A DNA stretch of 64,000 nucleotides. Source: Owenia fusiformis (taxonomy: Eukaryota > Annelida > Polychaeta > Sabellida > Oweniidae). A program made the position numbers and the translations under genes. Location: NCBI GenBank assembly GCA_903813345.2, contig CAIIXF020000001.1, positions 48,749,885 to 48,813,884 of the forward strand. Direction: 5' to 3'. Below are positions 10,042-62,755 of this stretch, piece after piece (position 1 is the first letter of the stretch; the number at the start of each line of letters is the position of its first letter). The notes below the pieces were generated by a model that was not told the origin of the DNA, searched no databases, and worked only from the letters and a program-made list of their open reading frames with translations.

Positions 10042-10110
10042 ATGTATACTCAATACTTTATCTTGGTGCTCTGTTTATTATTATTAGGTGGCTCCAATTC
10101 AGCAAAATCG
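10042..10110 (+). CDS. SDC: Syndecan exon 1, signal peptide
   Basis: Encodes [20 protein letters not shown] and AKS, then donor gtaagt (phase 0). The run of ten hydrophobic residues after a short polar start and the small residues GGSNSA fit a cleavable signal peptide. The frame is open upstream to about 9940 without another ATG, so this ATG is the only likely start. Confidence 0.85.
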
Positions 10111-13100: not shown

Positions 13101-16100
13101 CAACATCTGTAACAAATGGCTGGTGATGACATTTTGCATATTGATGCCTTGTTAATATTTTATTCTAATGTGAACCAAATATGACCAGTAACTGACTAAA
13201 AAGGGTAAGGAGAATGATGACCTCATTCATTAGAAAATTCTAAATCTTACATATCGCCTTAGGAACCTTTTCCTCTTAGGTAATAACTTACTAGATCACC
13301 TTGTCCCTGATTTATGATAGTGATTACATATACATTGAGACATGAATTCTTGATTCGCCAAGTAATGAAATCTATCATTACGTAAAGGGAGTATTATTTC
13401 AATCCAAGGAATGGCCTATTGAATCATAATCAAATCACTAGCAACCAGACAAACTATTAATTGTAGCAATCCAAGTTAATTCCTACCAATGTAACTCTCG
13501 AGTTTGATTCTTGTTTGCAGTTGATAATGTTGCCTGGAAGTAATCTGTCTATCTATAAGATGCATGCAAAGCATTTCATTACTGAGACCATCTGCTTCAA
13601 AAATCAGCTCAATTTTTGTTGTTGAACTTGAAATAATTGTTAATGATGAATTCAGGATTGCTATTTTAGTATATATTATCCAGTGTTTGAGTCATTTCTC
13701 ATTCGTATTTCTCCCTGAGTGGCTATAAAAGTCTTGTTCCCCCAAGAAAGTAACTGTCTTTTACCTTAAATAATTGACCATCTTGTATGATGGAATGAGA
13801 TCAGTGGGACCTTATATCAAGTATTGGTTTGGTAAGTATTACAATGGACTATCTCAGTTCCAAGAATATACCATGTCTATATTGATTTTATTTGTCGTAA
13901 GATGTTAAAAAGGACATCATTGCTCCTGGATAGCACATGCCAAGAAAATAATTGAAATGAAGGTAGATGAAGTACAGGACTTTAAGTTAATGCCACTTTG
14001 CATTGCAAATGTTGAACTAAGGATGGAGATCTTGTCTATCAATTTTGCATTTTTTTTGCACTTTGCCAAAATTCAAAACTGCTCCCTCTTTCACTCCCCA
14101 AAAATATCATGTATTGCATGTGCAATATTGACATGCTATTTTTTATTTTTTCCTTTATAGCGAGACAGGGACAATGGATGGGAAAAAAGTAACACAATGT
14201 CCAGGGAGAAGGGAGAGCACCATAAAGAAGTGAAAAAACAAGAAATTTGGATTGATGATGAGGTATGGCAATTTAACAATGGCATCTTATATGGATTTCT
14301 TCAATCATACCTTATGGTTTATTACTACAGTAGATATACAGTCATCCTTATACTTTCCTATTTTGACAATTTTAAATCTAAAAAATAATGATTGAAGGAC
14401 TACATTACAAGGAAATAGACAATATACATACCTTAATGTGACTTTTGTATATTTTGATGTTTTTCTGCCATGTTATTCTTTCAAAATTAACATGGCTGAA
14501 GTATTACCTAACTATCTGAAATATATACAAAAGTTAGGGGGGGATATATACAATGTATGCTTCTATTCTATATTTTGATGTTTTTCTGCCATGTTATTCT
14601 TTCAAAATTAACATGGCTGAAGTATTACCTAACTATCTGAAATATATACAAAAGTTAGGGGGGGGATATATACAATGTATGCTTCTATTCTTCCATATGC
14701 TGTTGCAATGTGGTCTTTAGATTGCTTATTTTTGGATCCAGAATTGTGAGGAAGACTGTGTTCATTTATGAGATAGAACAGTGAGGCTTTAGTATTGTGC
14801 TTAGGCTTATCACTGTTATGACCTGCTATAAATCCACAGTATAGTCTTGCATCAAGTTCCCTAACTGTATATTTTTTCTCAAGAAAGTGAGGATATGTGG
14901 AAGAGGATATAGGGGGTTGATGCAAGTTTATTTGTACAAATATCAAGTATTAAAATGATTACATGAACTTGTTTATCATTTTTTATTTCCTTTAGGTTTT
15001 AAAACCTTGTTTTTCTTGTTTAGCAGGATATCACGTAGGTTCAATAGTCCTTGACAGGGTACACAAGTAGATATACCTCATTTTTTATTTTATACAGCCT
15101 CTGAATTACTGTTTCATCCCATGTATGAATTGTTGCATTTGTTTCAATTCTATCAACATCAAAACTGTTGGTGATTTTTAAAATTGGATAAAAGTAATGT
15201 TGGCATTGGGGTACTGAAATACTATATAATTTAGGCTTACACATAAGTTAATGAAAATAGATGCATATCCACATTGAATCAATCTTAGCCAATCCTAATT
15301 TTCTGGATGTCTGTTTTATGATTAAATTCCATAAAACAGCCAATGATTAGGTGCAGCATAGCTCCTATTTTCAATCACAATTTTCGAGGTTAGAATATTT
15401 GTTCTACTCGGCTAACTGCATAAGGTGGTGGTCATGGTGATTAATGAGAAAATGCAATCATACCCTTGAACAAAATACCAAGAGGTTTCCATGATACATT
15501 GAATTCACCAGAAGATGATGGATTAACTAAAGAATTGTATATATTAAATCATTCTTGTATTAGCTATGGGAGTATTTGATACTTGGTTTATGATAAGAAC
15601 TGGGAGTGCTTGAAGAGTCTGAAGTTAGAAAAACATAATACCAAGAAAGTATAGTATCATGGGGAGATCACTGCTAATGCATGCTCAAAATGTCTGAATA
15701 TCAGATACTTTATTCACTTTTTAAGAGAAAGTGAACCTGATGTTTATCTAAGGATGTGAGGCCATTGAGATCATAGATTGTACTGCGTTGTGCAGTGGTT
15801 TGTTCTGACCATGCACTGACTCATTTATATTTTAGCCTATAAGCTGCTGTGATTTGTCATCTTGCCTCATTTAAATTAATAACAGTTGAATACCTCTGGG
15901 AGAACACCATCCATCATGGTACATGTTTCAGTTGTAAATTCGCCCAATCGATACAGCATACATACATATATATATAGAGAGAATAAAACCTATGCTTGTG
16001 TTGTAAGGTTTTTGCTTGCCTATTGAGTAACGATATTACAGAATTGTTCTATTGTCTCCTGACGGAGCCTTCCTTGGGGACCAGACTTATCAAATTCTGG

Positions 16101-19100: not shown

Positions 19101-22100
19101 TTGCTATGGCTGCAACATTATATAGGATACAATTTTGATATACTGGTTGCTATAGTGATTTGAGAGTGCCCTTTAGGTTCAGTACCTTTTGAAAGACATT
19201 TTAGCACATAAATGAAAAACATTTGTGATATTTTAAGTCACTGTGAATCTGTAATTTTGTAAAAGCTTTCTAGTTGATAGAAAGTGAAACTACAATAGTC
19301 AGAGGATATTGAACTAGTGGTTTGCTCAGGGTAAAAAATTGTAGCAATGTGATTTAGATACATGTACTGAAATAGAGCTGATACGTTGTTACACAATGTA
19401 TTGGTTAAAAGAGTGCAAGAAAAATAACAAGATTAGGGCCACTTAAAGTGTTAGAAATGAGAATCCAGCTGGTACTTTACTGATTAGTACCAAAAAACAA
19501 GAACTCAACATTCAGCACGTCCAAACTCTTACATTCTGGTCATATTCTGGGTCATGGTTGTTTCTATCATTTCCTCTGTAAAGAACAAAGACATAAAAGA
19601 TATTTAAAGTATTCATTTAAACATGAACATGTTGTTATAATTGAATCATATTTTTGTACTTATCTCAATAAAGAAATTGTTTTTCCATTTTGCAGGATGG
19701 AATGCATTACCATTTTCCTTGAGTGAATAGTCCTTCTAGTTATCTAAGTATCCTTCATTGATCTCTTAATTCTTTTCTTCAGAAAGTAACTAAGAGACCC
19801 CGATGGTCTTTCCTCTACAGGCTCAGCTATTATGAATCTTCAAGTAGCGGTGATGATGGTAAAACAATAACATTGAAAATGCATCAACTAGAACCTCATC
19901 ATACCTGGAGGGTTCAATTTTGTTTTCATATACACACAGACAATGTCATACATGTTATTATGAAAGACCCCTCACTACTTTTGTATACGATAAGAATAAC
20001 CCCAAACCTTATTTTATTTATATTGCTGGTAAATGAATTCAACAATGTTACTTTCAGTTTTTGAAGGTTTGATCATTTTTTCGTATCACTTAAATAAGTC
20101 TTATCCTGAAAAGAAATTTATTTTTTAACTGAGAGCCCTTAAAAAACGTGTTTCTCTTCACTTTTATATTTAATTGGCACACTTTAGTTGAGATATTTGA
20201 TGAGTGAATCCTCTAGGGTGAAGGCCATACATATGATAAGCTTCTAGTGGTGCATTTAAATGTGACTTAATTTTGTTTTTTATTCATTTCTCCATTACAT
20301 ATTTCTAGATTAAGATGGAATGCAGCTGTTAAGGGAATGACTAAATACACTAAAAAGTGTATTGAGATCATTTCTTTTAATCGTTATTGTATCATTTTTG
20401 AATATGTTTCCAGTATGTTGATTTATTTTCAGGCATGCCATATTTGTTTATTTTTTGTTTCTGTTAGGTATTTTCCCATGTAACTAGATGCTGAAAATAT
20501 GTAATTTTGGCAGAAAGTGATTTCCACTTTTGCCTCTTGGGCAACTTCATTTATTGACGCAGCAGAAGTTAGGATTTTATTAGATTTGGCCGAAACACAA
20601 CTACTGTAGAGAGATCTGTTTTATACCTCCCAAGACTCCGTATCAAAATCAGTAAATCTGGAATCCAGCTCATCTAAAAATAAGTTCATAGTACTAAGTT
20701 ATCTAGTTTCTTATCTCATTTATGAGTTATAATCATTGATTTTGGAAGTATAGGAAACAGAAATGGGGTTTACCACTTAGCTTGGTATTTGAATGCAGCT
20801 AATTCTATGAATGTCCTTGATGCAAATGAAATATTTGATTCGTAGAAACAAGGTTGTATTAAGCTTCATTATTAATCATTATCATTGTGATTTATTCATG
20901 TTTTCATCCCTAGCTTTTTATTATGAATTTCGCCAAGTTAAGCCCATTCATAAGGCATGACCCACCACTGCATGTTGTTGTGTTTATTTGCAATATTTAA
21001 GCATTATGTTCTGTTGGTTAGGATGAGGGAAGTGGGCCAGATGATAGAGTAGATCCTACCACAGATGACGAGGACATGTGGGATGAAGATGGTCCTTCAG
21101 GTCATGGTATGAATGATGATGAAGAAGGAGATATGGGCTCAGGAAAAGGTATGCAGTTATATGATATTTTGTTGTCTATATGTAATACAGTATGATATCC
21201 TCTTCTGGTGGTGTTTTCTGAAATAATTATGCTAATTACAAGCTAGGTTTAGTGTGTCACCACATGTATCTCTCACAGTATCAATATCATAGGTAGCATC
21301 CACGTGATCAAAGGCGCATGCTATGATGCCTATATCAGTGGCTGTTTTTTACTTCAAAATGTGCCAATTTCTCATTTTCAAGTGAGAACAAATTAGTTTT
21401 CAAGTGGCTGTAACCCAATTTTCAAAACCTCAAGTAGACCCAGCATCCACTTTTTAATGCCATGGAGATCACTACTATATTTATTCTGTATTGCCAAATT
21501 CTGATACTGTCAGACTGAGCACATAGTATAATAGCTACAATGAGGGCTGTACCATGTGTTATTCTGTTCACTTATTTTGTATTGTCAGATCGTGGTAGTA
21601 CTATCCGGTGTGGCATACCATCGTTACTTGATCCATGGCTGAAAGAATACACCGGTTTAACAGTATGGTAGCATACAGTATGATGCGTATAGCAGGCCTT
21701 TGACCTATCATGGATTCTACCTATGTATTTTCTGTGAAGAACATCGTAATGATTATATGGAAATTATACACGGAATTATTGATCAAGTCAAGTCTTAGAT
21801 GGATCATGTCAAATGATATGACACATCATGAAAACTTGTTGCTAAATTTATCAGAATGGGAACAAGATGATACCGTGCTAATTAGTGTTATAAACTAGGG
21901 AGATAATGTCAATTACACCCCTGGGAAGAAAAGTTCTTGGTTTACACCTAGCTAGATCACACCTAGGTGTATACCAGGGCTGGATATATCTCCCTAGATA
22001 AATGCTTACGCTGGATTTAGAATCATAGGATAATAATTGTTGTATTCATGGGAAGGCATTCTACAGTTCCACATCTGTTATTGAAGATTTTGTAGTGAAA

Positions 22101-25100
22101 AATCAGTGGTCAGGCAATCAATCAGTGGTCAGAGATAATCAATCGGAAGTCTGAAATTTAATCATCGTTCATATCAAATTCAATAGATGAATTCTGTCTT
22201 TCTTTGGGAAATATTTTCTGCTTTAACTTTCTCGTTATTTTTGGCCCAAATGTAAGAGCTTCACTTCTTACATGTACATGAACATGATGACTTTCAAAAA
22301 TGAAAAACAAACATTTTATCATTCTTAACACTATGATCAATTAGTCAAGTCTGCTAAGCTCTCAAAGTCTGCAAATCTTCTTTAACATTTGTGGAAGATA
22401 TAATGTGCATGAATCTTATAGTACTTTTATGTGTACAATTTGTGTGATGGGGAAAACATCAAAGGTATCACCATGCTTTACACCAAGATGCTCTCCCAGT
22501 TAGGTTAAGATATTCACTTTGAACTAAAGAGTCGGTTTAATACATGGGATTAGAAACCTTTTAAAGGCTTCATATTGGTTACATACAATGGTATCAGAGT
22601 TAGGGAAATTCCAGAAAGAAGACCATCTTATCAATATATTTATCTATTCCGGGTCAAGAATAAACGGATTCAAAAAAGATAAGTCTGAAGCTTTGAGAAT
22701 AACAGCATTTTCAGCAGATGGGAACGTCTCCTGATATTGAAGCATCTGTAATGTAGACATCTCTTTGTTATATTTTCTATCATATTCTCCACTTTAATAT
22801 GAGATATCAAATGACAATATCACATCTCAACTTTGAAAGACCTCTTGTATATTATATACAATATAAGATATTGAGTTTTAGCATTGTAGCCTGGAGTTTT
22901 AGCATTGTAGCCTGGAAATCAAACTTTGATCGGCTCGTCTCAAGAAATATCAGGTTCTCGGTTTATTAATGTGAGTATAATTATGACTAAAACCAGCTAA
23001 GCAAACCTCAGATATCAGATTATATGAATTATTGGAAAAGATCTAAGTTGCGGCTCTGTGTTTAGATTGGAATGTCTACACAGTGTTGTTACAAATGATA
23101 TATTATGAAATAGTACCTCATACCCAATACCAATATACAACTTGGAATTAATAGAAACATACTAACATGGAGTCCTATGAAATGTCATATTGCAACTGGA
23201 AGAGTCGGCTAGCTCTTATGTTCCAGAAATGTTAAGTTTCAAGCAGTATATCTTGATATACACTATATAGGATACTCTATAGAGAGCAATAGAAATTTAA
23301 TTATTTATATTATATCCTTTTCTGAACGTGTTTACTCTGTTATTGGTTCAGTTAAAACACCTTACTGATAAAAAGCCTATGTTGCGCACACCTTACCAGC
23401 AAACATCTCTTGTAAATACCTTACCAGCGAACATCTCTTGTAAATACCTTACCAGCAAACATCTCTTGTAAATACCTTACCAGCGAACATCTCTTGTAAA
23501 TACCTTACCAGCAAATATCTCTTGTAAATACCTTACAAGCAAACATCTCTTGTAAATACCTTACAAGCAAACATCTCTTGTTAATACCTTACCAGCGAAC
23601 ATCTCTTGTAAATATCTTACCAGCAAACAACTCTTGTAAATACCTTACCAGCAAACATCTCTTGTAAATACCTTACCAGCGAACATCTCTTGTAAATACC
23701 TTACCAGCGAACATCTCTTGTAAATACCTTACCAGCAAACATCTCTTGTAAATACCTTACCAGCAAACATCTCTTGTAATACCCTGCATGCAGAGTCTAG
23801 TTAAACTACACTCTGCCTAGTAGAGACCATATTACAGTTTAGTAGCTTATCCCCCACGACGGGTACCGGTGACAGTTTGGGTAAAATTGACATACGCGCT
23901 GACCTTTCTTCCACCAATCAGCGAGCTTGATGAAACATACGCCAAATGCGTTCTAATTAAATATGCGCGTGTCATTGGTCAATTCCGGGCTCAAGGATGA
24001 CGTCAGAAGGAATGACCATATATAGAACGTCGGTCAAATTTGGCCGACGAACACTGATCAGTGCGGTGAGTTCACAGGTTTATTTTAGTTTGAAAGAGTG
24101 AAGACGAAGCTCTCTTTGAAGAAGTGAAGTCAAACGAATGCAAAGGGTACTCTTGTAAATACTTTACCAGCAAACATCTCTCATTTCATTAAATGATATG
24201 TACCAGATGCACAAATATTACTCAAAGAGAATCATATTAAAAACAAAATTATATGTTATTACTGATCCAATTGTGTCACAAGACAATTTTTAAAGGCTCT
24301 ACTGAATGCACATGTAGTTTGATGTACCCATTCATTCTCTGTTGATCTGAATACCAGGTGAAACTAAATGTTGATTTCAACTTTCATTTATCTATCGCCA
24401 TATATCATACTGACGTTTATATTAAGCTTCTCTGTGTACTTTGGTTTTAATAAGTGCTCATGTTTTTACTTTAACCTAAAACTAAAAGGTTCTTAGTTTT
24501 GCATTTAATTATGAAAAATCAGAGAGAGAAAATGATAAAAACAGAAAATGTAAATGTTATTAGAACATGCTTATGATTCTAAATCATTCAGGAAACAGGA
24601 AATAGTTTTCTTAAAATTTTTGAAAGCAAATGGATATAAATAAAACATTTCCTATAATGGCATTTTCAGTTTAAGAAGGACATGTTTTGATTATACACAT
24701 GTCATTTGAAAAGCTCTGTTTAAATCTACCTACGCTAGTTCAAATGATTGATTTCAGTTTTGAAGAGAATGTATTAGGCCACTATATTTTGGCTTAGATT
24801 TTTGTATCCTATGAAAAGAAATATATTTTCAAAACAATCTACATATTATATATTACAATGTAATTCCTATTTTCAAAAATGTCTACAAGTCTTCAGTCAT
24901 TTAATTCAATTTGTCAGTGTGTGACTGTTTGTGCAAGTTTGGCTCAAATTTTGGTCTAAACTGAGGCAGAAGCGTGTAAATTGAGTCTACTATTTCAAAA
25001 TTTGAAAGGTCGCAAGAACATTGATATCCATATTAGTCATCAGTCTTAGCATTCACATTTTATCATTTCCGTTCTCTGTAGTTTTCTGTCACAGCATGCT

Positions 25101-28100
25101 TAAGAATAAAGACATTCTTTGGTTCAAAGCTACACAATGCGAAAGAATAAAAATACATAAATCAACTGATTGCTTCAACACTTCTATAGAGAATCACATG
25201 TGTGAAGGACATTAATGGTAAACTCTTTGCCATGTATTCTCCTGGTTCTAATAGCTGACTAATAAGAGGTGTAAAGGAGTGAACCTTTGCCCTATCAAAC
25301 ACAATCTTTAATATGTTGAGCTTGTTACCTCTTATCACTCTTAATTCCATGTATTCCCCTGTTTAACAACTCCTTTCCTTTATTCCTGGGATTTCTATAT
25401 GATTTAGAGTATTGCAACTTCATTATCAGAAATTAATGTATTCTGCTCTAATTGATTTCCCGTTATACATTATTTTAGTGAGATAAAATATCACCATCGT
25501 GACATTTTGATAAGCATTAACACTGTGTTGACAATATACCATAGAAATGAACTTCCCTTTCCCTTATGAAATGCCAATATACCAAAATAGAAAGTCATTT
25601 GATATAAGAAAAATATGGTGAACGGGAAAACCTAATGAAGCTCTCAGGTAACACCTGAGAATCTATTATTTAGTATCGGAAAAAACAAAATGAATAAGCT
25701 ATTATTACCATCATTGAATGTTTCCTTTCATCTGTTGTTTTAGAACGAATAAAAGTACTTCACATTCGAATAATTCTCTTTGGTTTTTGTATCAAACCAA
25801 GCCTGATTCAGATTATTTAGTCTATGGTATTCATTATGTTGTTATTCGGCAAAATTGCTCGAACAGAAATGTTATGTTAAGTCAAATCTAATGGTTACAA
25901 AGTACAGTAAAAAACGCTAATAAAATCAGGCTATAATTTGGTCATCTGAAAGCTTCTATTATTTCCGAAGGACCTGACCTGAATTCATTATAACGTTATT
26001 GGAATGAACTGTGGGGTTAACCACAATCTTTTCAGTATACTGGACAGGAATATTCATACAGAAAGACAAATTGACAATGCATATTAGAGCTATACTTTCT
26101 CCAAGATCTTTTAGAATATTGATAATGCATATTGTATTAGAGCCATACTTTCTCCAAGATCTTTTAGAATATTTTTCTCTTGTTACATCGTTTTCTGCCA
26201 ATGTGATTTCATATCTACGTTATTATTTTTCTATAAGGAACAGAGTATAGTACTCGAGTATTCTATAGTTAGCTCCAGGATGTGTGTTTTGACCATGACA
26301 TAATTGACCTAACATGATGTGGGATGTTAAACTAAACCCCATGGTGACTTTAGCATATGGCAAATTATCAGTATTGCATACATAAATTCTCATTGCTATT
26401 TTTGTTGTTGATGATATTCGGCATCATATTTTGTTAAGTAAGTGTATCAATAAGAGTCCATGGGGTAGAGTAAAAGGCTGATAATTGGTATGGCGATAAT
26501 TACTGACCTTAACAAGTACTTCTTGAGACATATCTTCTATATTCGAAGTCGTAAACTCCAAAAGTTAATTAATATCTGACAATTTTATTTGTAAATTGTA
26601 TTTCAAATGTCATGAGCATCAAATTAAAGCAAATTGAATGAGACAACTGTTTAATCATTAATGCTATGGGGAAATTATTTCATGTCACTGCAGGGTATTT
26701 GTTCAAATATAACCTTTTACTCCCCACACAAACCCTTCCTGACTGGGAGAGCATAATTTTTACCCCACGTACCCTTCCTGTCTGTGGGAGAGCATAAGTT
26801 GTAGAACATGGTGTAAACAGAATTTTATGATTTTTGTGCAAATAGTATTACAATTAAGCAGTCTTACGTATAAGGTTGAATAATTGCTCATAAATTGATG
26901 TTGAGAGGCAATTTTTCACTTTGGATGTAAGACTGTTGTCAGATCAGATCTGTCATATATGCTTGTGAGTACCATGACCCAAAATCGCTTTAATAGTACA
27001 AGATGTAGTCTTTTATCAAGTCTGTGTTATTCCATCCCTTGAAAGTAGACCCCAAAAATAGGAAAAATCTGTCAGTCAGAAAATCAACATTTGGAAACCA
27101 AAACAAAATTAATTAAATTTTTCCATTGGTGCCATTTAGACAATAGTATCCATTATCATTGATGATATACAGTTTGGCAGTAACTTTGGATCTCAATTTA
27201 TAGAAGTAGATATGTATTTCAGAAATCTATAAATTGATTTCCAATATTTGTAAATCTCCTTTACCTTACCAAGTCGATCATGTAAGTTGGTAATGATAAC
27301 TGACATGTTCTGGCAAACAGATACAGTCTTGATGCAGACCTACATGACATGTTATTGCATGGGGTGCCTAGGTAATAGTTGTTGTTTATTATATTCTAGA
27401 TATGAGTTCCAAGCCCACCGATGATGAAGATATGTTTGAAGGATCAGCAGGTGAGAGACTTATAAGGGTTGTGATCGGGAAATACAATGTACATTCATGG
27501 GACAGTCAAATTAAGTTGCTCCTGGTACATGGTGGAATGGTCAAATTAGCCCTCTGTTTCTTCATTGTGACACACCTAAGAGCTTGCTAAATTTAACACC
27601 TGTTTTTAAGGAAACCTATTTATTGTTTTTCTTCAATTTGACTGCCTTGAATTCCGAGATATCCTCAAATAATAAATTTGTTATTAACTGTATATGTATG
27701 TTTACCATATAACCATGTAGTATCAAGCTAACAGCAAGGGGTTCTCCATATTAGTTTACTTCTGCCTTGATTTCACATTATAAGACATGGTAGGGTGTTT
27801 GCTGTAGTTCGAATATTTCTTCAATATTATTCTCAAGCGTAGATGGTGTATTTATTTGTGGTTCAAGAGACAATGTACAGGTTGTTTGCTTTGCCTGTTT
27901 ATGCTCAGTTTTAGACTTTGCGGTCAAATTCCAGAATGGGTTGGTTTGAGATAAGTAACCATAGAGATTAGTTTCTGTAATTCCTGGTTTGGTGTGGCTT
28001 TGGGTTTTATTTTGAAATTGATGAAACTCAAAATAACTTTTTGATCAAAACGTTACAATTGCATCCTGTTGATGAACCCCTGGTGATTTACATAAACTTA

Positions 28101-31100
28101 AGCTAAATTAAATATGGAATATTTGAGGATATCTCACTTTAAGCCATGTAAAATACTGTTGATGTCTAAACTTTATCTGTATGTCATCTATCTCTTAATG
28201 TTTGAGATCAGGGAAGACAATAGGGAAACCTGGATCAACATGAACCAGGGGGACAAAACGTGTGGATAACATTTCTCATTTGAATAATATTATTGCAATT
28301 AATTATTAAATAACAAATTAGACTTTCAAAATACAATGTTATTATTGGGGAACAAATGAAAATCCATTGTGCCCCAGGTTCGTCTATTTGTAAATAAGGA
28401 CTTACATCACTATTCTTTTCCATATATCTCTGTTTAAGTCATTTATGTTCGTTTTTCTGTAAGCGTCAAAAGTCAATGTACTATGAAGCTTTGGATTCTG
28501 TCTTGCATATAACCTCAAAAGAGCTGTCAAGACTGTTATTGCATATTGATCTCTTCAAGATTTACTGTTACATGTTGTATTTGGGGAGATATGCAAATTG
28601 CATCATACTTAAAGGCTCTACTATGTAGGGTTAAAGTTGCCCTTAATCCCAACAATATGCATCAGTTCAATGAGATATACTGTTATTTTGAGGATAAATG
28701 TAAGACAGTAAATGTAATCATTCTCTACTGTAATATAAGATGTTTGCATGGGTGCATTAGGCAATAGCTGTTGTTGGTTGTATTCTAGGCACAGCTGATG
28801 ATGAAGACAGTTCAGAGGGTTCTGCTCTGGGTGCAGGTAAGAATTGAAGTCATTGGAAACAATGGAAACGTATAGCTTCCTAGTTATCAGTGGTGGCATT
28901 ATGTTTAAATTACCTGTGAATATTTTCAATATAGGAAGCTTAAATAGGCTCAACTTGCAGTTGCCCTACTAAGAATGCACGGAAAAAATTAATAAGATCA
29001 AAGCAACCTGTAACCAACCCTATAGTCTTATATCTATTCCCAAGTAAATTATATTTATACAAAGGTGATTTTGTGTACTAATTTCAAGAAATGTGGGAAC
29101 ACTATTAAGATGTATGTATTAAGCATTTTGATTAATTTGAGACTGAAGCCAAGAAGGCAAAGGTGAGTTTGTCTTGGAACATTTTTATCAACAATTTATT
29201 GTTCAGTTTTGCCCTTCCTGTTGTTTAATCATCTTTGTTCGGCATGGTTTATTTGTTTTCATCTAGTAAAACATTCTACTTGATTTTTGCGCTCCTGGTA
29301 GGTTTTGAGACCTAAAGTGGTCAGCAAATATATACTTCAAGTTTAATTTGAAGTTTGTACATATTATACCTGTACACTTATTTTCAATACTGCATCAATT
29401 TGTTCACATTCAAGTACTTCTTGGCATGAATCAAACTGATCAAAGGATATGATTTTATAAAATGCAGCACTCAATATGACCATTTTTCACTTGACCTAGT
29501 TTTGACAAATTAAAATCATGTTTTCCCTCCCTGTAAATGTGCTGCTTAATGGAACAGTAAATTAAATATTAATACTCTTGGTACAGTACATTTCTAGAAA
29601 TGTGTTTTTATTGCCGTATTTGACATTTGAAAGAATAATAAAATAGAGTTAATATGATAACATGTATGCATAATGAATGACAATATCCTTCTTAACAATA
29701 GTGATGTAACTATTAACAAATACAGTTTGTGAGTAGTCTAAATCGTCCTTGTGGTCATGTTCTCTTCCTTCTAAAAATTAAAAATTGAGATATTTTAAAA
29801 ACAAAGACAAACATAGAGAAAATTATATATAGAAATGAATCTGAAACTTCATTGAAGTTTGAGAGATCAAGAAACTGGGAAATGAACTTGACAACAGCTC
29901 AGAAATTAACATGTTTATTGTGAATGTAAATGCATGCTGGTGACTCTAACTTGCTTTCTGTAGACTTACTGTCTGACTGTCTCCAACTTCAACTTGATGT
30001 CCAGCAGCGAGGTCTCCTAGGAGCATACAAACCTGACTGTACTGAAAATGGAGAGTTTGAGAAAATTCAGTGCCACGGTAGCGTGTGTTGGTGCGTAGAT
30101 AAACAGGGGCGTGACATCACAGGCACTCGGGGACAAATTGGAGAAATACAATGTGAAGAAGGTATGGTTTATGTATTAACATAACCCTTTAGTGAAATTC
30201 ATGTTTAGGTGATGGTAATTCACTAGTGCATGTACATGAATTCCCAATCTAAGAGTCTTACCAAAGGAAAAGCTAATAATGCTGTGAACGTTTTGATTGA
30301 TTAATCTATTAATCCATGTTGATCTATCTTTGTCTGAATGAAAACACATAGAACGTGGGATTTCTGAATATTTTAGTCTTTTGTGAACCTATTGGAATTT
30401 TACCGCTATGTTAGAAGTTTAATTTCTTGAATACAGCCAAGTTTTGTGTTTTCCTATGGGATTTTGCATTTGTTTAGAGGAACAATATTATTTTCTTTGC
30501 AAAGCTGCCAAATAAATAGGTCCTTTTGCCAAATGTCTAAAGTTCATAAAATAAATGTATTGAAATTATATCCTTTTGTTGGCCAGTTGAATGATATTAA
30601 AGGCCCACGATCACATTGAAAGTGTCAGGATATCTAATGTAAAGTCAGTTTTATGAATGCTTAATGTCTGTATAGAGGTCATATTGTGGTTTATGTTCTA
30701 TTGGGGTCCTGTTTTAGTACATTCTTAAGACTTCTTTGTCCGATCAAGTCAACTGTAAAACAACCCTGTATATAGGATATTACTTTGTATATAAAGGAGG
30801 TAACTGTCCACATGCTATCCATATGAAAAAGTCCTTATGTACACATATAGTACATGTATGTGTACTCTCCAAATCTGGACAAATAAAACGGATTGACAGA
30901 TTGGATTGAAAGTCAAATACCTATGCTAACACGGTAGTTCAAATAGGTACACCGTTAACTAGCATATATGCTACATGGCTGGCGTTTAATTTTAAAATGA
31001 AAGAAATCTTCTGAGGCATTATTGTCCTTGTAAATTACCCAGTGGACTTTAACCTTTTATTAGAAAGAGTCTGTTATTAATCTTTTACAAGATACTGTAC

Positions 31101-34100
31101 TGGCTTTGACGTAAAGGAAAATTATAAATGACATTTTCCAACTGTATGTTTATCATCACTTCATTTTTATCTTGAGGTCTTGATATTTGTCTGATACTCT
31201 CTGATACGCCATTCATTTAGAAAATTCTCTAACAGTTTTATTTTTGTCATTGTGTATATCTGATTGAAGTCATAATGTTTCATACTTTACATTGTTATGA
31301 CTGAATGCTTTAAATGCAAATATACAATATACTGGCAGCAACATGTGCCATCCATATTGTATGGTTCCCACTAGTTTTGGGTATTATGGTCAAAATCCAG
31401 ATATACTAAAAACAATACTGTCTTGTGTTTTTGTTAAAACACTAATAGTTGTGGATATGAGCCTTACTTAGACTTGGACATGCCAAGGGTATATGGATAT
31501 TCCAAATTGAATTAAAACATGTTATGTTATTTTCTTTTGTCACAGGAGAATATCTCTAATAAGTCTACACTGACCATTGCTCTGGATATTGCCTTTTGAC
31601 ACCTTTATTTTCTGATTCACAGGTGTTGTTCCAATAGGTGGTAAAGGAAACAAGGACAGAATAAAGCCAATCATAAAGCAAGGAGGAGGCATGGATGGCA
31701 ATGAACCCAAAGATAAGGTATGTGTATTGTTATGTCGCATATTGAAGGCATCATGATTTATGGTTAAGTCAAAAAGTCTGAGGGGCCAATAGGGCATAAG
31801 ATAGTGATGGTAAACATGTATTGAAACTAGTAAACACATTTTTATTTATTTATGAATATCATTGGTTTACAATGAGCTCTGTTGTAAAAGTGACACTTAA
31901 AAAAGATAAACATGTCTTGCTAACCTTTAGTGCATGAAGTATGAAGCCTTATTTTGGGGGGGGGGGGGCACTTCACAATATCTATTTTTGTGGCAGTAAT
32001 ATTTTAAGGTGAGGGGAGGGCCAGTAAAACATTGAAATTTAAAAAATAAGCAACATTTTTAATTATACATGTCCATAAGCTCTTGTGAAGAACATTGATG
32101 TTGACCTGGTTTCCTTGAGTTTAGCAAATTGTGTATATGAAACGTATTGTGTTGTAGGATCAGGATGAAGAGAACAGAGATGATAATGACATTGGATATA
32201 ATATAGACACACCTACTGGGGAAACAAGTACAGAAGTTAATAATGCTATACCTGTCATCCCAGGTAAGATAAATAGCCATTTTACATAAGGTACAAAATT
32301 GCGGAGGAAAAGGTGGGGGGGTAATCAGTATGTACTATTGTAGTATACAGCCTTCAATTTTTCCAAAAAAGATCAGGTTTAAAAGGATTACATCCACAAA
32401 TGATATTTTCCAGTTTGATATACATAATATTATGATTTGGTTTTATAGAATTCTCCAAAAGTAATATTCTAGGATAGTTGCAAAAATCTATTAATACAGT
32501 GGAAATGATGAATCGTTACCTCTGAAATAACCACAGCAAGTGTTATTCAGTATTTGTATATTGGGAAACGTGCTATTTTGTTGAATTTTGAGATTAGTTT
32601 ACAATGTGTTAAAATGTACTGATAAACAAATGGGCAGCCATCCAATGGAATTTAGTATTCTATATCCACTGCAGAAGTAGCTTAGTAAAGTTTGTATTGA
32701 AATTGAATATTCCAAGATCAAACATTTTAATTAAAATTGTTTTAATTAATATTCTTGTGTTTTTGGCTCACACAGTGAGCCTATGGGATTGACCAGGCGT
32801 CCGTCCGTCCGTTGGTCCGTCCGTCCGTTGGTCCGTCCGTCCGTCAACATTGGCTGCACAAATTAAAACTGCTATTCGGATTGAGTCATATCCACATTCA
32901 TTTTATGCATATCCATAATGCCTATTTGACCTATCATCGCCATTTCCCAAGTTCGTCTGGTTTCCGAGAAATTGCGGATTTTGACGTCAAAAAGTCAACT
33001 TTTCTGTAAATACTAGACACTTTGTTGAAGTAGAACTTTCAAATAACTTTTAGTAGTTGGTGTATATGCAACTTATGTCCTCTGAAGATTTCAAAGCTCT
33101 TGGAATTACGGTTTTTGGTGTTTACTCTATAAAATTTGAAAAAAAGTAGGACTTAGTCATTTTCAGGAAACTTTCTCATGTATAAAGTCAATGGCAGGTT
33201 TTGTGATTGACAAGATTCTTAAAGTTTGCCTTATACTTGATCATTTCCTGCAATAAATTACATCATTAATAGATTTAAGCATTCCCTACATATTTCTCAA
33301 TATATGTCAGCATCAAATTTTTACTGTTTTTGAAATATTTGACGTCAAAAAACAGTGAAAATAAGTTATTTTTCAACTTGCTTCAATTTGACTGATTTTT
33401 TTTTTGAAAATCAACTACAAGTTGCCAGGAGTTCAAATCTGACATTAGTTTTAGGATTTGACCTTTACTTGACCTTCAGTGACCTTCGAAAAGTTGATTT
33501 TTCAAATTGATTTTTGGATGTAAATTTTGGTCAGCTTAATCACAAAAGACCTTACTGAGCTCTGAATGAGTAGAATTTTCAAGGTCAAAGGTCATCAAAC
33601 TAGGTCACATAACTATGCTATCTAAGTTTCTCAAAGTTCGAGACTACAAATCCAAATCAATATTTTTGTTTTAAAGTCAGGATATAAATTCCTCTGAAGG
33701 TTCCAAACTGTGTGAGCATAGGACCGTGGGTCCTTCATTTATTCAATATGGTCGATCTGTGTGTATTATTACAAGGGCACTTGAAGGAGTACAGTATATG
33801 GCATCACTAGGATGAAGTTGAACAAATTCAGTTTGGTTGTTTCAGGCCACAATATCATTGATTTGCTAAATGGTTTGAACTTTAAAGAGCTTAAAGGCCC
33901 ATGCCAGGATTTCCTATGTTTATTTATTTTGATGCCAAGAACACTCATTCATGTTACAACAATAACAAGACATTCTCATATCCAATAGGTGGCATGATTT
34001 ACTTAAATTTCATTTGGAATAAGGGAGTTGCTAAATAGCTGAATAAACCTGAATAAATAGATGTCAGCACTTGTTTTTTTTTGTTTCTGTTGTGACAGAC

Positions 34101-35059
34101 TGCCATAGACTTAAATAGTAAAAGTTTACAATAGTCACTTAAATGATATTTCAAACAAAAATTGGTTGAATCTGTCCAAAACTCGATTGGCATACTATGG
34201 GATCTTGTTAATGTACATATTGTGATTAATCATGAAATTTTTTGTTGTTGAACGAATAAACCAAGGTTGTAAAGAATTTTAATATTGCATCAATGGAGAT
34301 TTGGCACACGCTTCTTTTAGAAAAGATTAAAAAAGTCATGGAAAATGATAACTATATGTATATAAAGTATCTTTGTAGAAAACTTTCCACTGAATTTAAA
34401 TATGCTTTTAAAAAGAAGGAAAGGTCATTAGAGGTTTAATATGCAAATCTCTTAAAATCTCACAAAAAAGAGAATAAGCGAGATTTTAAAGCTATATAGA
34501 AACCACTTTATTCCAAAGCATTACTACTTGTAATACTTGTAACTTGTAATACTTGATGAATAACTTTCAAGATTGTTTGCATTTAAAGTACTAACAGATA
34601 ATGGTCAATATCAAATATCTATGTGTGTGTATTTCAGAGGAAAAAACTACTAAACCTGAAGAAAACCCTGACTTCATGGAGAAGAAGGGGGATGATGTGG
34701 GTGCAGCTGCTGTATTGATTGGCTCACCAGGTATTTTAGCAGGTAAGGTTTGCCAATACAATACTCAGTGATCTCCCCTGCATTAAAGCAAGTGGTTATT
34801 TATATACTATGTATTTTAGTTTTCATTGAAACATTCCTTTATAAGTGGTAGCAAACTTTGCATATTAACAAGTATATCTCTTTTTCCAGGAATAATAGGT
34901 GGTGCTGTAGTTGGCCTCCTTTGTGCAGTCCTACTTGTTATGTTTATCGTCTATAGGATGAGGAAAAAAGATGAGGGGAGTTATCCACTGGATGAGCCTA
35001 AAAAGACCACGCCCTCACATTCATATCAAAAAGCACCCACTCGGGAGTTCTATGCATGA
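10042..35059 (+). CDS. SDC: Syndecan with a thyroglobulin type-1 domain in its ectodomain
   Basis: Single-pass cell-surface proteoglycan core protein, whose family carries heparan or chondroitin sulfate on Ser-Gly sites and signals through a short conserved tail. Ten coding exons join in frame (69+102+127+51+48+198+95+106+105+170 bases) into 356 residues. Order: signal peptide 1-21; basic/acidic linker; Ser-Gly exon (S61, S83, S97 beside acidic residues); two short acidic exons; thyroglobulin type-1 domain about 133-198 with Cys 138, 158, 169, 174, 176, 196 and a CWCV core; linker; membrane helix about 298-322 with a GxxxG; C1 region [10 protein letters not shown]; variable region; C2 region [11 protein letters not shown] ending in the PDZ-binding EFYA. 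The last 34 residues make the family call secure. The thyroglobulin domain is absent from the syndecans I know of in vertebrates, flies and nematodes. All junctions obey GT-AG with matching phase. An alternative exon at 19783-19858 is described separately. Confidence 0.93.
10584..10810. repeat. Dispersed repeat family, diverged copy in syndecan intron 1
   Basis: Shares the order of blocks seen at 14.45 kb and 46.3-46.9 kb: ATTTTGATGTTTTTCTG, a complementary second half, then TTGCAATTTGGTCC and a T-rich tail. Strongly diverged. Confidence 0.5.
12790..13080. repeat. TGTCACCACC element, short copy
   Basis: Starts TATGTCACCACC and an immediate GTGGTGACATATTGTTGTGG (a small hairpin). Ends ACTAGGTAGTGACATTTTAA with ATGCCTTGTTG. 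The same start and end bracket the 1.1-kb element at 52.7-53.8 kb. Lies in syndecan intron 1. Confidence 0.7.
14161..14262 (+). CDS. SDC: Syndecan exon 2, charged linker
   Basis: 34 codons, phase 0 to 0, preceded by tttcctttatag and followed by gtatgg. Reads [11 protein letters not shown] then [19 protein letters not shown] and IDDE: strongly charged, ending in acidic residues that lead into the Ser-Gly exon. Identified from splice sites, phase and composition, not from similarity. Confidence 0.72.
14441..14735. repeat. 121-bp tandem duplication of a dispersed repeat
   Basis: Two almost identical 121-base copies (14450-14570 and 14571-14691), each starting TATTTTGATGTTTTTCTGCC and containing CATGTTATTC...AACATGGCTG. 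They belong to the family also seen at 10.6 and 46.3-46.9 kb. Near identity implies a recent duplication. Lies in the intron after syndecan exon 2. Confidence 0.85.
17478..17770. repeat. Roughly 95-bp tandem repeat, three copies
   Basis: Copies begin TTCTGAAAATGATGGTTACC at 17478, 17580 and 17672. They share ATTCATTAAATCATAACTC. An 80-codon open frame across them is a repeat by-product. Confidence 0.85.
19783..19858 (+). CDS. SDC: Possible alternative syndecan exon 3a
   Basis: Strong acceptor (tcttttcttcag) and donor (gtaaaa) surround 76 bases open only in phase 0. They read [19 protein letters not shown] then SSSGDD, ending in a Ser-Gly next to acids as in glycosaminoglycan sites. It goes from phase 0 to phase 1, exactly like exon 3b at 21022-21148. 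Using both in one transcript would shift 3b out of frame into an early TGA, so they could only be alternatives. It may be a chance exon. Confidence 0.42.
21022..21148 (+). CDS. SDC: Syndecan exon 3b, glycosaminoglycan-attachment exon
   Basis: Reads [12 protein letters not shown], then an acidic run and [19 protein letters not shown]; phase 0 to 1, acceptor ggttag, donor gtatgc. Three Ser-Gly pairs with acidic neighbours (S61, S83, S97) are good candidates for xylose addition and sulfated chains. Composition fits a syndecan ectodomain. Confidence 0.88.
22873..22914. repeat. 21-bp direct duplication
   Basis: Two adjacent exact copies of a 21-base unit beginning GAGTTTTAGCATTGTAGCCT. Confidence 0.85.
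23389..23778. repeat. 28-bp minisatellite, about 14 copies
   Basis: Unit of 28 bases beginning ACCTTACCAGCAAACATCTC and ending TTGTAAAT, with one to three changes per copy (CAAAC against CGAAC). Located in the syndecan intron between exons 3b and 4. One further partial unit lies beyond the inserted element, at 24150-24184, showing that the array was split by an insertion. Confidence 0.95.
23779..24149 (+). mobile_element. 371-bp MITE with 8-bp target duplication, inserted in the minisatellite
   Basis: The element starts ATACCCTGCATGC and ends GCAAAGGGTA, so the ends match as inverted TACCCT. CTCTTGTA is present on both sides (23771-23778 and 24150-24157), and the minisatellite unit resumes exactly after it. 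An 8-bp duplication is the hAT signature, although TACCCT is not a standard hAT end, so the superfamily is uncertain. The interior is much less AT-rich than its surroundings and carries promoter-like motifs (next entry). Confidence 0.85.
23911..24065 (+). promoter_or_regulatory. Promoter-like cluster inside the MITE: CCAAT, CRE, TATA, splice donor
   Basis: In order on the + strand: CCAAT (in CACCAATCAGCG), an inverted CCAAT (TCATTGGTCAA), a full CRE TGACGTCA at 23998-24005, TATATAG at 24019-24025, then about 40 bases later GCG followed by gtgagt at 24066, a good splice donor. Order and spacing fit a compact polymerase II promoter pointing the same way as syndecan. Activity is inferred from motifs only. 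Confidence 0.4.
26076..26174. repeat. About 48-bp tandem duplication
   Basis: AATGCATATT...ATACTTTCTCCAAGATCTTT...AGAATATT occurs twice in a row with a few differences. Open frames on both strands over this site are by-products. Confidence 0.8.
27400..27450 (+). CDS. SDC: Syndecan exon 4, acidic exon (duplicate of exon 5)
   Basis: Phase 1-1 exon reading [17 protein letters not shown]. The acceptor region (ttatattctag) and the 50 bases before it are clearly similar to those of exon 5, and both peptides share DDED and EGSA, so the pair arose by tandem duplication. EGSA resembles a glycosaminoglycan site but has Ala in place of Gly. Confidence 0.85.
28789..28836 (+). CDS. SDC: Syndecan exon 5, acidic exon (duplicate of exon 4)
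   Basis: Phase 1-1 exon reading [16 protein letters not shown] with acceptor ttgtattctag and donor gtaaga. Length is a multiple of three, so skipping it would leave the frame intact. Confidence 0.85.
29964..30161 (+). CDS. SDC: Syndecan exon 6, complete thyroglobulin type-1 domain
   Basis: 198 bases, phase 1-1, encode one whole thyroglobulin type-1 module: Cys, then [29 protein letters not shown] and a final Cys. All six cysteines, the CWCV core and the GTR are present, so the fold should be intact. In other proteins such modules bind or inhibit cysteine proteases, or act as extracellular-matrix binding units; which applies here is unknown. A symmetric one-exon module is the classic unit of exon shuffling. 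It is joined to its neighbours by phase-matched canonical splice sites. Confidence 0.92.
31623..31717 (+). CDS. SDC: Syndecan exon 7, basic linker
   Basis: Phase 1 to 0. Reads [19 protein letters not shown] then [14 protein letters not shown] glycine- and lysine-rich linker after the thyroglobulin domain; the lysines could be protease sites for shedding, which is speculative. Confidence 0.82.
32158..32263 (+). CDS. SDC: Syndecan exon 8, acidic linker
   Basis: Phase 0 to 1, acceptor gtgttgtag, donor gtaaga. Reads [19 protein letters not shown], then a Thr-rich stretch [16 protein letters not shown]. Acidic, disordered-looking ectodomain with possible O-glycan sites. Confidence 0.83.
32765..33733. 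repeat. Interspersed element with CACAGTGAGC ends and a GTCC array
   Basis: Begins GGCTCACACAGTGAGCCTAT followed by repeats of GTCCGTCCGTTG, and ends ACTGTGTGAGCATAGGACC. The interior shares CTTGCTTCAATTTGACTGA and TTCAAATCTGAC blocks with the 52.7-kb element, so the two are related inside but differ at the ends. Lies in the syndecan intron between exons 8 and 9. Confidence 0.6.
34638..34742 (+). CDS. SDC: Syndecan exon 9, juxtamembrane exon with two in-phase donors
   Basis: Phase 1-1. Reads [20 protein letters not shown] then [15 protein letters not shown]. Two donors lie 12 bases apart in the same phase: gtattt at 34731 and the better gtaagg at 34743. The shorter form would drop four residues (GILA) at the outer edge of the membrane helix. 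The acidic juxtamembrane sequence is where syndecans are normally shed. Confidence 0.85.
34890..35059 (+). CDS. SDC: Syndecan exon 10, transmembrane and cytoplasmic domain
   Basis: Phase 1 start to TGA at 35057-35059. Encodes [20 protein letters not shown], then [18 protein letters not shown], a short variable region and [11 protein letters not shown]. The C1 and C2 regions are nearly identical to those of all known syndecans, and EFYA binds PDZ proteins such as syntenin and CASK. This exon alone identifies the gene. Confidence 0.97.
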
Positions 35060-61711: not shown

Positions 61712-62755
61712 TGCTGTATCATATGTGCTGTACCATGTGTATGTGTGCTGTATCATGTGCTGTACCATGTGTATGTGTGCTGTACCATATGTGCTGTTCC
61801 ATGTCTATGTGTGCTGTATCATATGTGCTGTACCATGTGTATGTGTCCTGTACCATATGTGCTGTACCATGTGTATGTGTGCTGTACCATGTGTATGTGT
61901 GCTATATCATATGTGCTGTGCCATGTGTATGTGTGCTATATCATATGTGCTGTACCATGTGTATGTGTGCTGTACCGTATGTGCTGTACCATGTGTATGT
62001 GTGCTGTATCGTATGTTCTGTACCATGTGTATGTGTGCTATATCATATGTGCTGTACCATGTGTATGTGTGCTGTATCATATGTGCTATACCATGTGTAT
62101 TTGTGCTGTACCATATGTGCTGTACCATGTGTATGTGTGCTGTACCATGTGTATGTGTGCTATATCATATGTGATGTGCCATGTGTATGTGTGCTATATC
62201 ATATGTGCTGTACCATGTGTATGTGTGCTGTACCATATGTGCTGTACCATGTGTATGTGTGCTGTATCATATGTGCTGTACCATGTGTATGTGTGCTGTA
62301 TCATATGTGCTGTACCATGTGTATGTGTGCTGTACCATATGTCCTGTACCATGTGTATGTGTGCTGTACCATGTGTATGTGTGCTGTATCATATGTGCTG
62401 TACCATGTGTATGTGTGCTATATCATATGTCCTGTACCATGTGTATGTGTGTTGTACCATATGTGCTGTACCATGTGTATGTGTGCTGTATCATATGTTC
62501 TGTACCATGTGTATGTGTGCTGTATCACATGTGCTGTACCATGTGCATGTGTGCTGTATCACATGTGTTATACCATGTGCATGTGTGCTGTATCATATGT
62601 ACTGTACCGTGTGTATGTGAGCTGTACCATATGTGCTGTTCCCTGTGTATGTGTGGTGTATCATATGTGCTGTTTCATGTGTATGTGTGGTGTATCATAT
62701 GTGCTGTACTATGTGTATGTGTGCTGTACCATGTGAATGTGTGCTGTGCCATTTG
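61712..62755. repeat. 34-bp minisatellite, about 30 copies, open in all three forward frames
   Basis: The unit combines TGTGCTGTACCATGTGTATG and TGTGCTGTATCATA-T, with copies that skip or alter the second half. Since 34 is not a multiple of three, each frame reads the same Cys/Tyr/Val-rich pattern in rotation, giving stop-free frames of 396, 291 and 208 codons. That makes these frames an arithmetic result of a stop-free unit, not evidence of a gene. Confidence 0.95.

What the first reader, a model, noticed from the sequence alone, without database searches (positions are those of the whole stretch)
29964..30161. Syndecan carrying an intact thyroglobulin type-1 domain
The sequence shows a complete six-cysteine thyroglobulin type-1 module (CWCV, GTR) in one phase 1-1 exon, spliced in frame between syndecan acidic exons and the syndecan membrane/EFYA exons. 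Known vertebrate, fly and nematode syndecans have unstructured ectodomains without such a module; thyroglobulin modules do occur in other proteoglycans such as testicans. A symmetric exon is the expected footprint of exon shuffling. Inference: this could be a membrane-bound, glycosaminoglycan-bearing protease inhibitor or matrix-binding receptor, possibly released by shedding.
Basis: partly seen in the sequence, partly recalled or inferred. Interest (0 to 1): 0.8.

Follow-up and report, generated by a model that had tools for sequence, protein, structure and literature searches.

The report
Syndecan with a protease-inhibitor-type domain exon
In what is probably the genome of the marine worm Owenia, the gene for syndecan (a sugar-bearing cell-surface receptor) appears to carry one extra, neatly packaged exon for a thyroglobulin type-1 domain, a fold that in some other proteins blocks protein-cutting enzymes; transcripts and relatives still have to confirm it.

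Summary
Exon 29964-30161 is 198 nt, phase 1-1, and encodes one complete six-cysteine thyroglobulin type-1 (Tg1) domain (PF00086, E 1.6e-14). It lies on the same strand, inside a chain of phase-compatible predicted exons that ends in a textbook syndecan membrane/cytoplasmic exon (E 1.2e-23). All three Ser-Gly sites lie N-terminal to the Tg1 domain, and every ectodomain cysteine lies in it. It is the only syndecan the genome search found; the other PF01034 match reads as a neurexin-type tail. The exon is frame-neutral: the protein stays in frame with or without it.

Best reading: a membrane-anchored proteoglycan with a Tg1 cassette, working like CD74 p41, where a Tg1 exon adds cathepsin inhibition to a membrane protein that can carry chondroitin sulfate. 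Gene structure about 0.88; inhibition about 0.4, untested.

It is a new variant of a known kind. No transcripts and no other animal genomes could be searched, so expression and lineage breadth are unknown.

The parts
10042..10110 (+). Exon 1 (predicted): start codon and signal peptide ([23 protein letters not shown]), phase-0 donor
   Evidence: one of 3 signal-peptide-like starts with a usable donor among ATGs in 1-29900; its phase fits exons 2 and 3; donor in the top 0.5% of window GT sites.
14161..14262 (+). Exon 2 (least certain): charged linker, phase 0-0
   Evidence: splice sites in the top 0.6% both, open frame; no domain match; the model stays in frame without it (322 aa).
21022..21148 (+). 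Exon 3: acidic ectodomain with the three Ser-Gly candidate GAG sites ([18 protein letters not shown]), phase 0-1
   Evidence: SG at residues 61, 83, 97 of the model; 40% Asp/Glu; acceptor top 4.0%, donor top 1.0%.
27400..27450 (+). Exon 4: short acidic exon (..[12 protein letters not shown]), phase 1-1
   Evidence: donor top 0.1%, but acceptor weak (top 19.1%); tandem duplicate of exon 5 (46 columns of upstream intron 82.6% identical, E 7.6e-6).
28789..28836 (+). Exon 5: short acidic exon ([15 protein letters not shown]), phase 1-1, duplicate of exon 4
   Evidence: acceptor top 7.5%, donor top 0.2%.
29964..30161 (+). Exon 6: complete thyroglobulin type-1 domain, 198 nt, phase 1-1 (the finding)
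   Evidence: six Cys, CWCV; E 1.6e-14 in the genome search; acceptor top 1.6%, donor top 0.8%.
31623..31717 (+). Exon 7: basic/glycine linker ([18 protein letters not shown]), phase 1-0
   Evidence: splice sites top 0.4% / 0.5%; phases bridge exon 6 (ends 1) and exon 8 (starts 0).
32158..32263 (+). Exon 8: acidic/Thr-containing stalk, phase 0-1
   Evidence: acceptor top 7.5%, donor top 0.2%.
34638..34742 (+). Exon 9: acidic juxtamembrane stalk, phase 1-1
   Evidence: acceptor top 7.2%, donor top 0.1%.
34890..35059 (+). Exon 10: transmembrane helix and syndecan cytoplasmic tail (C1 [12 protein letters not shown]2 EFYA), stop
   Evidence: PF01034 E 1.2e-23 in the genome search; acceptor top 0.2%.

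Best explanation
It is the syndecan gene of this animal (probably the annelid Owenia fusiformis), with one Tg1 domain inserted as a phase 1-1 cassette exon between the GAG-bearing N-terminal part and the juxtamembrane stalk. Shown from sequence: the intact Tg1 exon, the intact syndecan exon, same strand, compatible phases. Predicted: the splicing. Inferred: GAG chains attach at the three N-terminal Ser-Gly sites, and the disulfide-bonded Tg1 module is held near the membrane. There it works like the Tg1 exon of CD74 p41, as a selective inhibitor or ligand of papain-type cathepsins. Neighbouring GAG chains tune it, and the activity is released when the ectodomain is shed. The exon's symmetry means the cell could include or skip it without disturbing the membrane anchor. 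Probability: one gene joining Tg1 and syndecan about 0.88; that plus cathepsin inhibition as the main role about 0.4.
For: Tg1 and syndecan matches are both far above their cut-offs. The exon chain is in frame for 356 residues; donors all lie in the top 1.0% of window GT sites, while acceptors range from the top 0.2% to 19.1%. The Tg1 exon has phase 1 at both ends, as do the exon ends it would join. No signal-peptide exon with a phase-1 donor was found upstream and no other Pfam domain on either strand nearby. The exon lies between the signal peptide and the membrane helix, where an extracellular disulfide module belongs. The six cysteines outside the signal peptide and membrane helix are all in the module. 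The loop-1 pattern G-x-Y-x-P-x-C is shared with saxiphilin domain 1 (alignment), and saxiphilin inhibits papain and cathepsin L (PMC7863939, passages). In the tick thyropin a loop-1 Gly and Pro are proposed recognition residues (I did not align them to the window), and GAGs lowered its inhibition of cathepsin K, raised that of V and hardly changed that of L (PMC10889554, passages). CD74: alternative exon 6b encodes Tg1, and the protein can carry chondroitin sulfate (PMC12731121, passages).
Against: No transcript seen. Several Tg1 proteins (nidogen, IGFBPs, TROP2) have no demonstrated inhibition (PMC7863939), so inhibition cannot be read from the fold. GAGs can weaken as well as strengthen a thyropin. 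The single-sequence AlphaFold model is weak (mean pLDDT 66.6) and found no structural match at E<=0.001; it shows a helix and a hairpin in the expected order but does not prove the fold. Exons 1, 2, 4 and 5 are short predictions without domain support, and the acceptor of exon 4 is weak. No spliced copy of the gene was found in the genome to show the spliced form.
Confidence: 0.4

Rival explanations
1. Same gene, but the Tg1 domain is a ligand- or matrix-binding module rather than a protease inhibitor, for example tuning BMP/growth-factor signalling next to the heparan sulfate chains, as SMOC does in trans.
For: The two Tg1-like domains of SMOC are needed for its BMP inhibition; Pent, its fly orthologue, binds the HSPG Dally, and SMOC is modelled to act through HSPGs such as syndecan-3 (PMC5360445, passages). 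SMOC-1 EC-domain cell adhesion is ascribed to cell-surface HSPGs, syndecans or glypicans (PMC3578922, passages). The closest own-genome match by E-value is a SMOC-like Tg1 exon (36% identity, 37 bits).
Against: Bit scores to thyropins in the PDB are similar (p41 37.2, saxiphilin domain 36.2; a different program, so only roughly comparable). No follistatin or EC domain is present.
Confidence: 0.33
2. The Tg1 exon is a structural spacer or protease-resistant plug that protects or positions the stalk and sets the shedding site; it has no ligand of its own.
For: Syndecan ectodomains change fast in sequence (PMC1464127). Some echinoderm syndecans carry an SEA domain instead (PMC10381214). Exon 7 directly after it is basic and glycine-rich, a plausible cleavage region (inference).
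Against: All six cysteines, CWCV, GTR and the loop-1 pattern are kept, more than a spacer needs; but a stable core alone would keep most of these.
Confidence: 0.17
3. The exon belongs to a separate gene nested in the syndecan intron, or is a dead exon not included in any syndecan transcript.
For: No RNA evidence either way. Nested genes in introns exist (general knowledge).
Against: Of 3 signal-peptide-like starts with a usable donor in 1-29900, none has the phase-1 donor that the Tg1 acceptor needs (weaker signal peptides or donors could be missed). No other Pfam domain on either strand around it. Intact 66-codon frame with good splice sites in 33.6% GC sequence. Phases match the host gene at both ends.
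Confidence: 0.1

Closest known systems
Syndecans (Chakravarti and Adams 2006, PMC1464127, passages seen)
   Same: Signal-like exon, acidic ectodomain with Ser-Gly sites, one membrane helix, C1 [10 protein letters not shown], the conserved V-region Leu and Tyr, C2 EFYA, and one syndecan match in this genome.
   Different: Carries a folded, disulfide-bonded Tg1 module, encoded by one symmetric exon, in an ectodomain otherwise of low-complexity acidic kind.
Echinoderm syndecans with an SEA domain (PMC10381214, passages seen)
   Same: A syndecan with one folded module in the middle of the ectodomain.
   Different: SEA is a different domain, often self-cleaving (last point recalled); the passages report no Tg1 in them.
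CD74 invariant chain p41/p43, exon 6b (PMC12731121, passages seen)
   Same: A membrane protein that can carry chondroitin sulfate, with one Tg1 domain encoded by one exon in its luminal/extracellular part.
   Different: CD74 has its tail at the N-terminus (type II), is trimeric and an MHC class II chaperone, and has no syndecan tail. Alternative use of the exon is known there and only possible here.
Testicans (SPOCK) and SMOCs (BM-40 family; PMC9797564 and PMC3578922, passages seen)
   Same: Tg1 domains linked with proteoglycan biology; testicans carry a CWCV Tg1 domain and GAG sites. The two SMOC-like Tg1 exons in this genome are also best read as phase 1-1.
   Different: Secreted, with follistatin and EC calcium-binding domains, neither of which is seen here; no membrane helix or syndecan tail.
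EpCAM / TROP2
   Same: Membrane proteins with a Tg1 domain (type I topology recalled; PDB sequence matches).
   Different: No GAG sites and a different tail (recalled); for TROP2 no protease inhibition has been demonstrated (PMC7863939).

Membership tests
Syndecan | C1 ([10 protein letters not shown]) and C2 (EFYA) cytoplasmic motifs with V-region Leu and Tyr (C2, Leu, Tyr as given in PMC1464127; C1 letters recalled) | tested here: met
   [34 protein letters not shown]; PF01034 E 1.2e-23; definition seen
Syndecan | Single membrane helix before the tail | tested here: met
   Helix [21 protein letters not shown] in exon 10
Syndecan | Signal peptide at the N-terminus | tested here: inconclusive
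   Hydrophobic signal-like exon 1 with fitting phase; judged by hydropathy only and joined by prediction
Syndecan | Ser-Gly GAG attachment sites in acidic context | tested here: met
   SG at residues 61, 83, 97 in exon 3
Syndecan | GAG chains actually attached | not testable with these tools
   Needs biochemistry
Syndecan | Usual ectodomain without a folded module (common, not defining) | tested here: not met
   Tg1 domain in exon 6, if spliced as predicted
Thyropin (MEROPS I31) | Tg1 sequence pattern: six Cys, CWCV core, one complete domain | tested here: met
   by sequence
Thyropin (MEROPS I31) | Tg1 fold in three dimensions | tested here: inconclusive
   Model mean pLDDT 66.6; 0 Foldseek matches at E<=0.001
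Thyropin (MEROPS I31) | Inhibition of papain-type cysteine proteases | not testable with these tools
   Loop-1 G-x-Y-x-P-x-C shared with saxiphilin domain 1 is a lead only
Testican/SMOC (BM-40) | Follistatin-like and EC calcium-binding domains (PMC3578922) | tested here: not met
   Pfam scans of the + strand 1-58 kb at E<=0.01 show neither
CD74 p41 | Cytoplasmic tail and membrane helix at the N-terminal end | tested here: not met
   Helix is C-terminal, in exon 10; the likeness is in how it may work, not in descent

The most novel reading that the evidence does not exclude
A syndecan whose core protein is itself a GAG-tuned, membrane-tethered cathepsin inhibitor: a frame-neutral Tg1 cassette lets one gene make a plain co-receptor or a co-receptor plus protease inhibitor. 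Shedding would turn the second form into a soluble, GAG-carrying thyropin. It would be an independent counterpart of the CD74 p41 exon, possibly old within annelids or lophotrochozoans.
Probability: 0.28. Interest if true: 0.75.

Novelty: new variant of a known kind. Interest (0 to 1): 0.55.

Why it matters
Syndecans are known for conserved tails and fast-changing ectodomains that act as co-receptors through their sugar chains (PMC1464127, passages). A syndecan with a Tg1 module would be a clear case of exon shuffling into this family. It would give the core protein a specific protein-binding or protease-inhibiting job, and would link two pericellular systems, heparan/chondroitin sulfate co-receptors and extracellular cathepsins, in one molecule. 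Because the exon is symmetric and Owenia (if that is the animal) has published developmental RNA-seq (PMC9977687, passages), inclusion can be tested at once.

Tried and rejected
Nested-gene reading: scanned for signal-peptide starts (only ATGs in 1-29900, hydrophobic ten-residue mean of at least 2.3, donor score above 3.5) and for other domains on both strands; nothing compatible. Second syndecan: the C8 match reads ...KDKGSYKIDES...KEWYV, a neurexin-type tail (family name recalled), so not a paralogue. Spliced retrocopy as proof of the transcript: searched with 224 residues from exon 6 to the end; nine matches, five being exons 6-10 themselves one by one and four being Tg1 or neurexin-type paralogues. 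Structure: single-sequence AlphaFold of exon 6 has mean pLDDT 66.6; Foldseek against PDB gave 0 of 299 matches at E<=0.001, so I put no weight on it. Relatives as contaminants of prokaryote or viral collections: 521 and 12 pattern hits, none confirmed (with the membrane/tail exon, with the Tg1 exon). SMOC or the two-domain Tg1 loci as a recent donor of the exon: identities of the six other matches 36-46%, so no recent copy is visible.

Literature for a reported syndecan+Tg1 protein: 3 papers; 2; 34, 25 listed; 93, 25 listed; 64, 15 listed; 47, 15 listed; 5. None of the listed titles or abstract starts describes one. I looked at passages, not whole texts, in PMC5360445, PMC3578922, PMC10326224 (all 3 papers), PMC10381214 and PMC4448532 (both), PMC9797564 and PMC1464127; none joins the two in one protein. 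The library lacks most subscription papers; the Tg1 evolution paper by Novinec is not held.

The exon listing was filtered for polar/acidic composition and shows only the best-scoring candidates, so exons of other composition could be missed. Searches used an end or start one base off for some exons (27401, 34891, 34743); one search has the corrected bounds. Pfam was not run on + 58-64 kb, - 1-26 kb or - 56-64 kb.

Full report
What is there. The window is bases 48,749,885-48,813,884 of contig C1 in a 498.26-Mb genome of 525 contigs. Of the 20 contigs whose lengths I saw, 12 are longer than 30 Mb and 8 are 0.66 Mb or less; the other 505 I did not look at. Owenia fusiformis is published as 505.8 Mb in 12 chromosome-scale scaffolds (PMC9977687, passages), so I take the animal to be Owenia or a close relative. 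This is inference from size and chromosome number, not from a sequence comparison.

The exon. Positions 29964-30161 are bounded by ...ttctgtag and gtatgg, 198 nt, with intron phase 1 on both sides. The translation holds one complete Tg1 domain with six cysteines. In the genome search PF00086 finds five exon matches among 13 candidates scored; this one has 62 bits and E 1.6e-14. Its splice scores lie in the top 1.6% (acceptor) and 0.8% (donor) of all AG and GT sites in the window. No other open AG..GT segment of 150-260 nt on either strand does as well on both sites (generic splice weights from memory; the thresholds were the exon's own scores, so it passes by construction, and the result is that nothing else does).

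The host gene. Exon 34890-35059 encodes the syndecan helix and tail, with C1, the V-region Leu and Tyr, and EFYA, features that PMC1464127 describes as conserved (passages). The genome search gave one further PF01034 match, on C8, whose tail ends KEWYV and reads as a neurexin (name recalled). So this is the only syndecan that the search found, as PMC1464127 leads one to expect of an invertebrate. The donors all lie in the top 1.0% of window GT sites. The acceptors are less even, from the top 0.2% (exon 10) to the top 19.1% (exon 4), with exons 5, 8 and 9 at 7-8%. Exon 2 (14161-14262) is the least certain; without it the frame also holds and the product has 322 residues (1071 minus 102 nt). Exons 4 and 5 are tandem duplicates including their upstream intron ends (46 columns, 82.6% identity, E 7.6e-6), which also supports exon 4 despite its weak acceptor. 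This ectodomain thus grows by copying symmetric phase 1-1 exons, and a phase 1-1 Tg1 exon fits the same logic.

One gene or two. The predicted exons between the signal peptide and the membrane helix are on one strand and in compatible phase. A nested gene would need its own signal peptide exon with a phase-1 donor. Of 3 signal-like starts with a usable donor among ATGs in 1-29900, none has phase 1 (10042 phase 0, 21540 phase 2, 29244 phase 0; weaker signals could be missed). Pfam scans at E<=0.01 show only Syndecan and Thyroglobulin_1 on the + strand of 20-38.2 kb and nothing on the - strand of 26-36 kb. By sequence alone I put the single-gene reading at about 0.88; RNA would settle it. A spliced retrocopy would also have settled it, but none was found.

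Where the domain came from. The other Tg1 matches are two SMOC-like exons on C8 and two related loci, on C6 and C1, that look like proteins with two Tg1 domains. Identity to the window's exon is 36-46% for the six other matches. PDB relatives (single thyroglobulin repeats, saxiphilin, CD74 p41, EpCAM, IGFBP6) score 30-37 bits per stretch, about like the best own-genome one (37 bits, another program). No recent donor is visible, so the insertion is probably old (inference). The two SMOC-like exons are also best read as phase 1-1, a usual state for a shuffled extracellular module (general knowledge).

How it may work. Three Ser-Gly sites (residues 61, 83, 97) lie N-terminal to the Tg1 domain (133-198). 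About 100 residues of stalk, starting with a basic glycine-rich exon 7 and then acidic, separate it from the helix. The nearest working model is CD74: its alternative exon 6b adds a Tg1 domain that inhibits selected cathepsins, and the protein can carry chondroitin sulfate (PMC12731121, passages). In a two-domain tick thyropin, GAGs lowered inhibition of cathepsin K, raised that of V and changed that of L little (PMC10889554, passages). A Tg1 domain held beside GAG chains on one core protein would be placed to use that effect, in either direction. Against this, Tg1 proteins such as nidogen, IGFBPs and TROP2 have no demonstrated inhibition (PMC7863939, passages), and SMOC needs its Tg1-like domains for BMP inhibition and is thought to act through HSPGs (PMC5360445, passages), so the binding-module rival is nearly as likely.

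Novelty. I found no report of a syndecan with a Tg1 domain in seven text searches. I saw listings for all of these and passages of seven of the papers, in a library without most subscription papers. The kind of thing is known: an SEA domain sits in some echinoderm syndecans (PMC10381214). I therefore call it a new variant of a known kind. Lineage breadth was not testable: the searchable genome collections are prokaryotic or viral, and two tries there found nothing.

Limits. Structure prediction from one sequence was too weak to use (mean pLDDT 66.6; 0 of 299 Foldseek matches at E<=0.001). The splice weights are generic. Exons 1-5 and 7-9 have no domain support of their own. Pfam did not cover + 58-64 kb, - 1-26 kb and - 56-64 kb.

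Noticed in passing
L006 (C6:2255500-2262000, - strand) and L005 (C1:19458500-19462000, + strand): Two related loci with Tg1 domains, one domain apparently split by a phase-2 intron and a second in one open frame; in L006 the first follows a signal-like stretch, so it looks like a secreted two-domain thyropin-type protein (inference).
   Followed up: partly
L003 and L004 (C8:7.211-7.224 Mb, - strand): Two Tg1 exons about 9 kb apart, best read as phase 1-1, of SMOC type by resemblance (gene name inferred).
   Followed up: partly
27264-27490 and 28641-28865: Tandem duplication of a short acidic syndecan exon together with the end of its upstream intron.
   Followed up: yes
34743-34889: Retention of this short intron would end the protein just before the membrane helix (..[13 protein letters not shown] stop), giving a soluble ectodomain without shedding.
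   Followed up: no
41989-42084, - strand: Match to NDUFS5 (PF10200, E 1.3e-5), probably part of a neighbouring gene on the other strand.
   Followed up: no
54240-54413 and 57823-57933, + strand: Two PQ-loop repeats (PF04193, E 2.6e-19 and 2.2e-5), probably one PQ-loop transporter gene.
   Followed up: no
23390-23783 and 61712-62732: A 28-bp tandem array of 14 copies inside a predicted syndecan intron and a 34/68-bp array near the window end.
   Followed up: no
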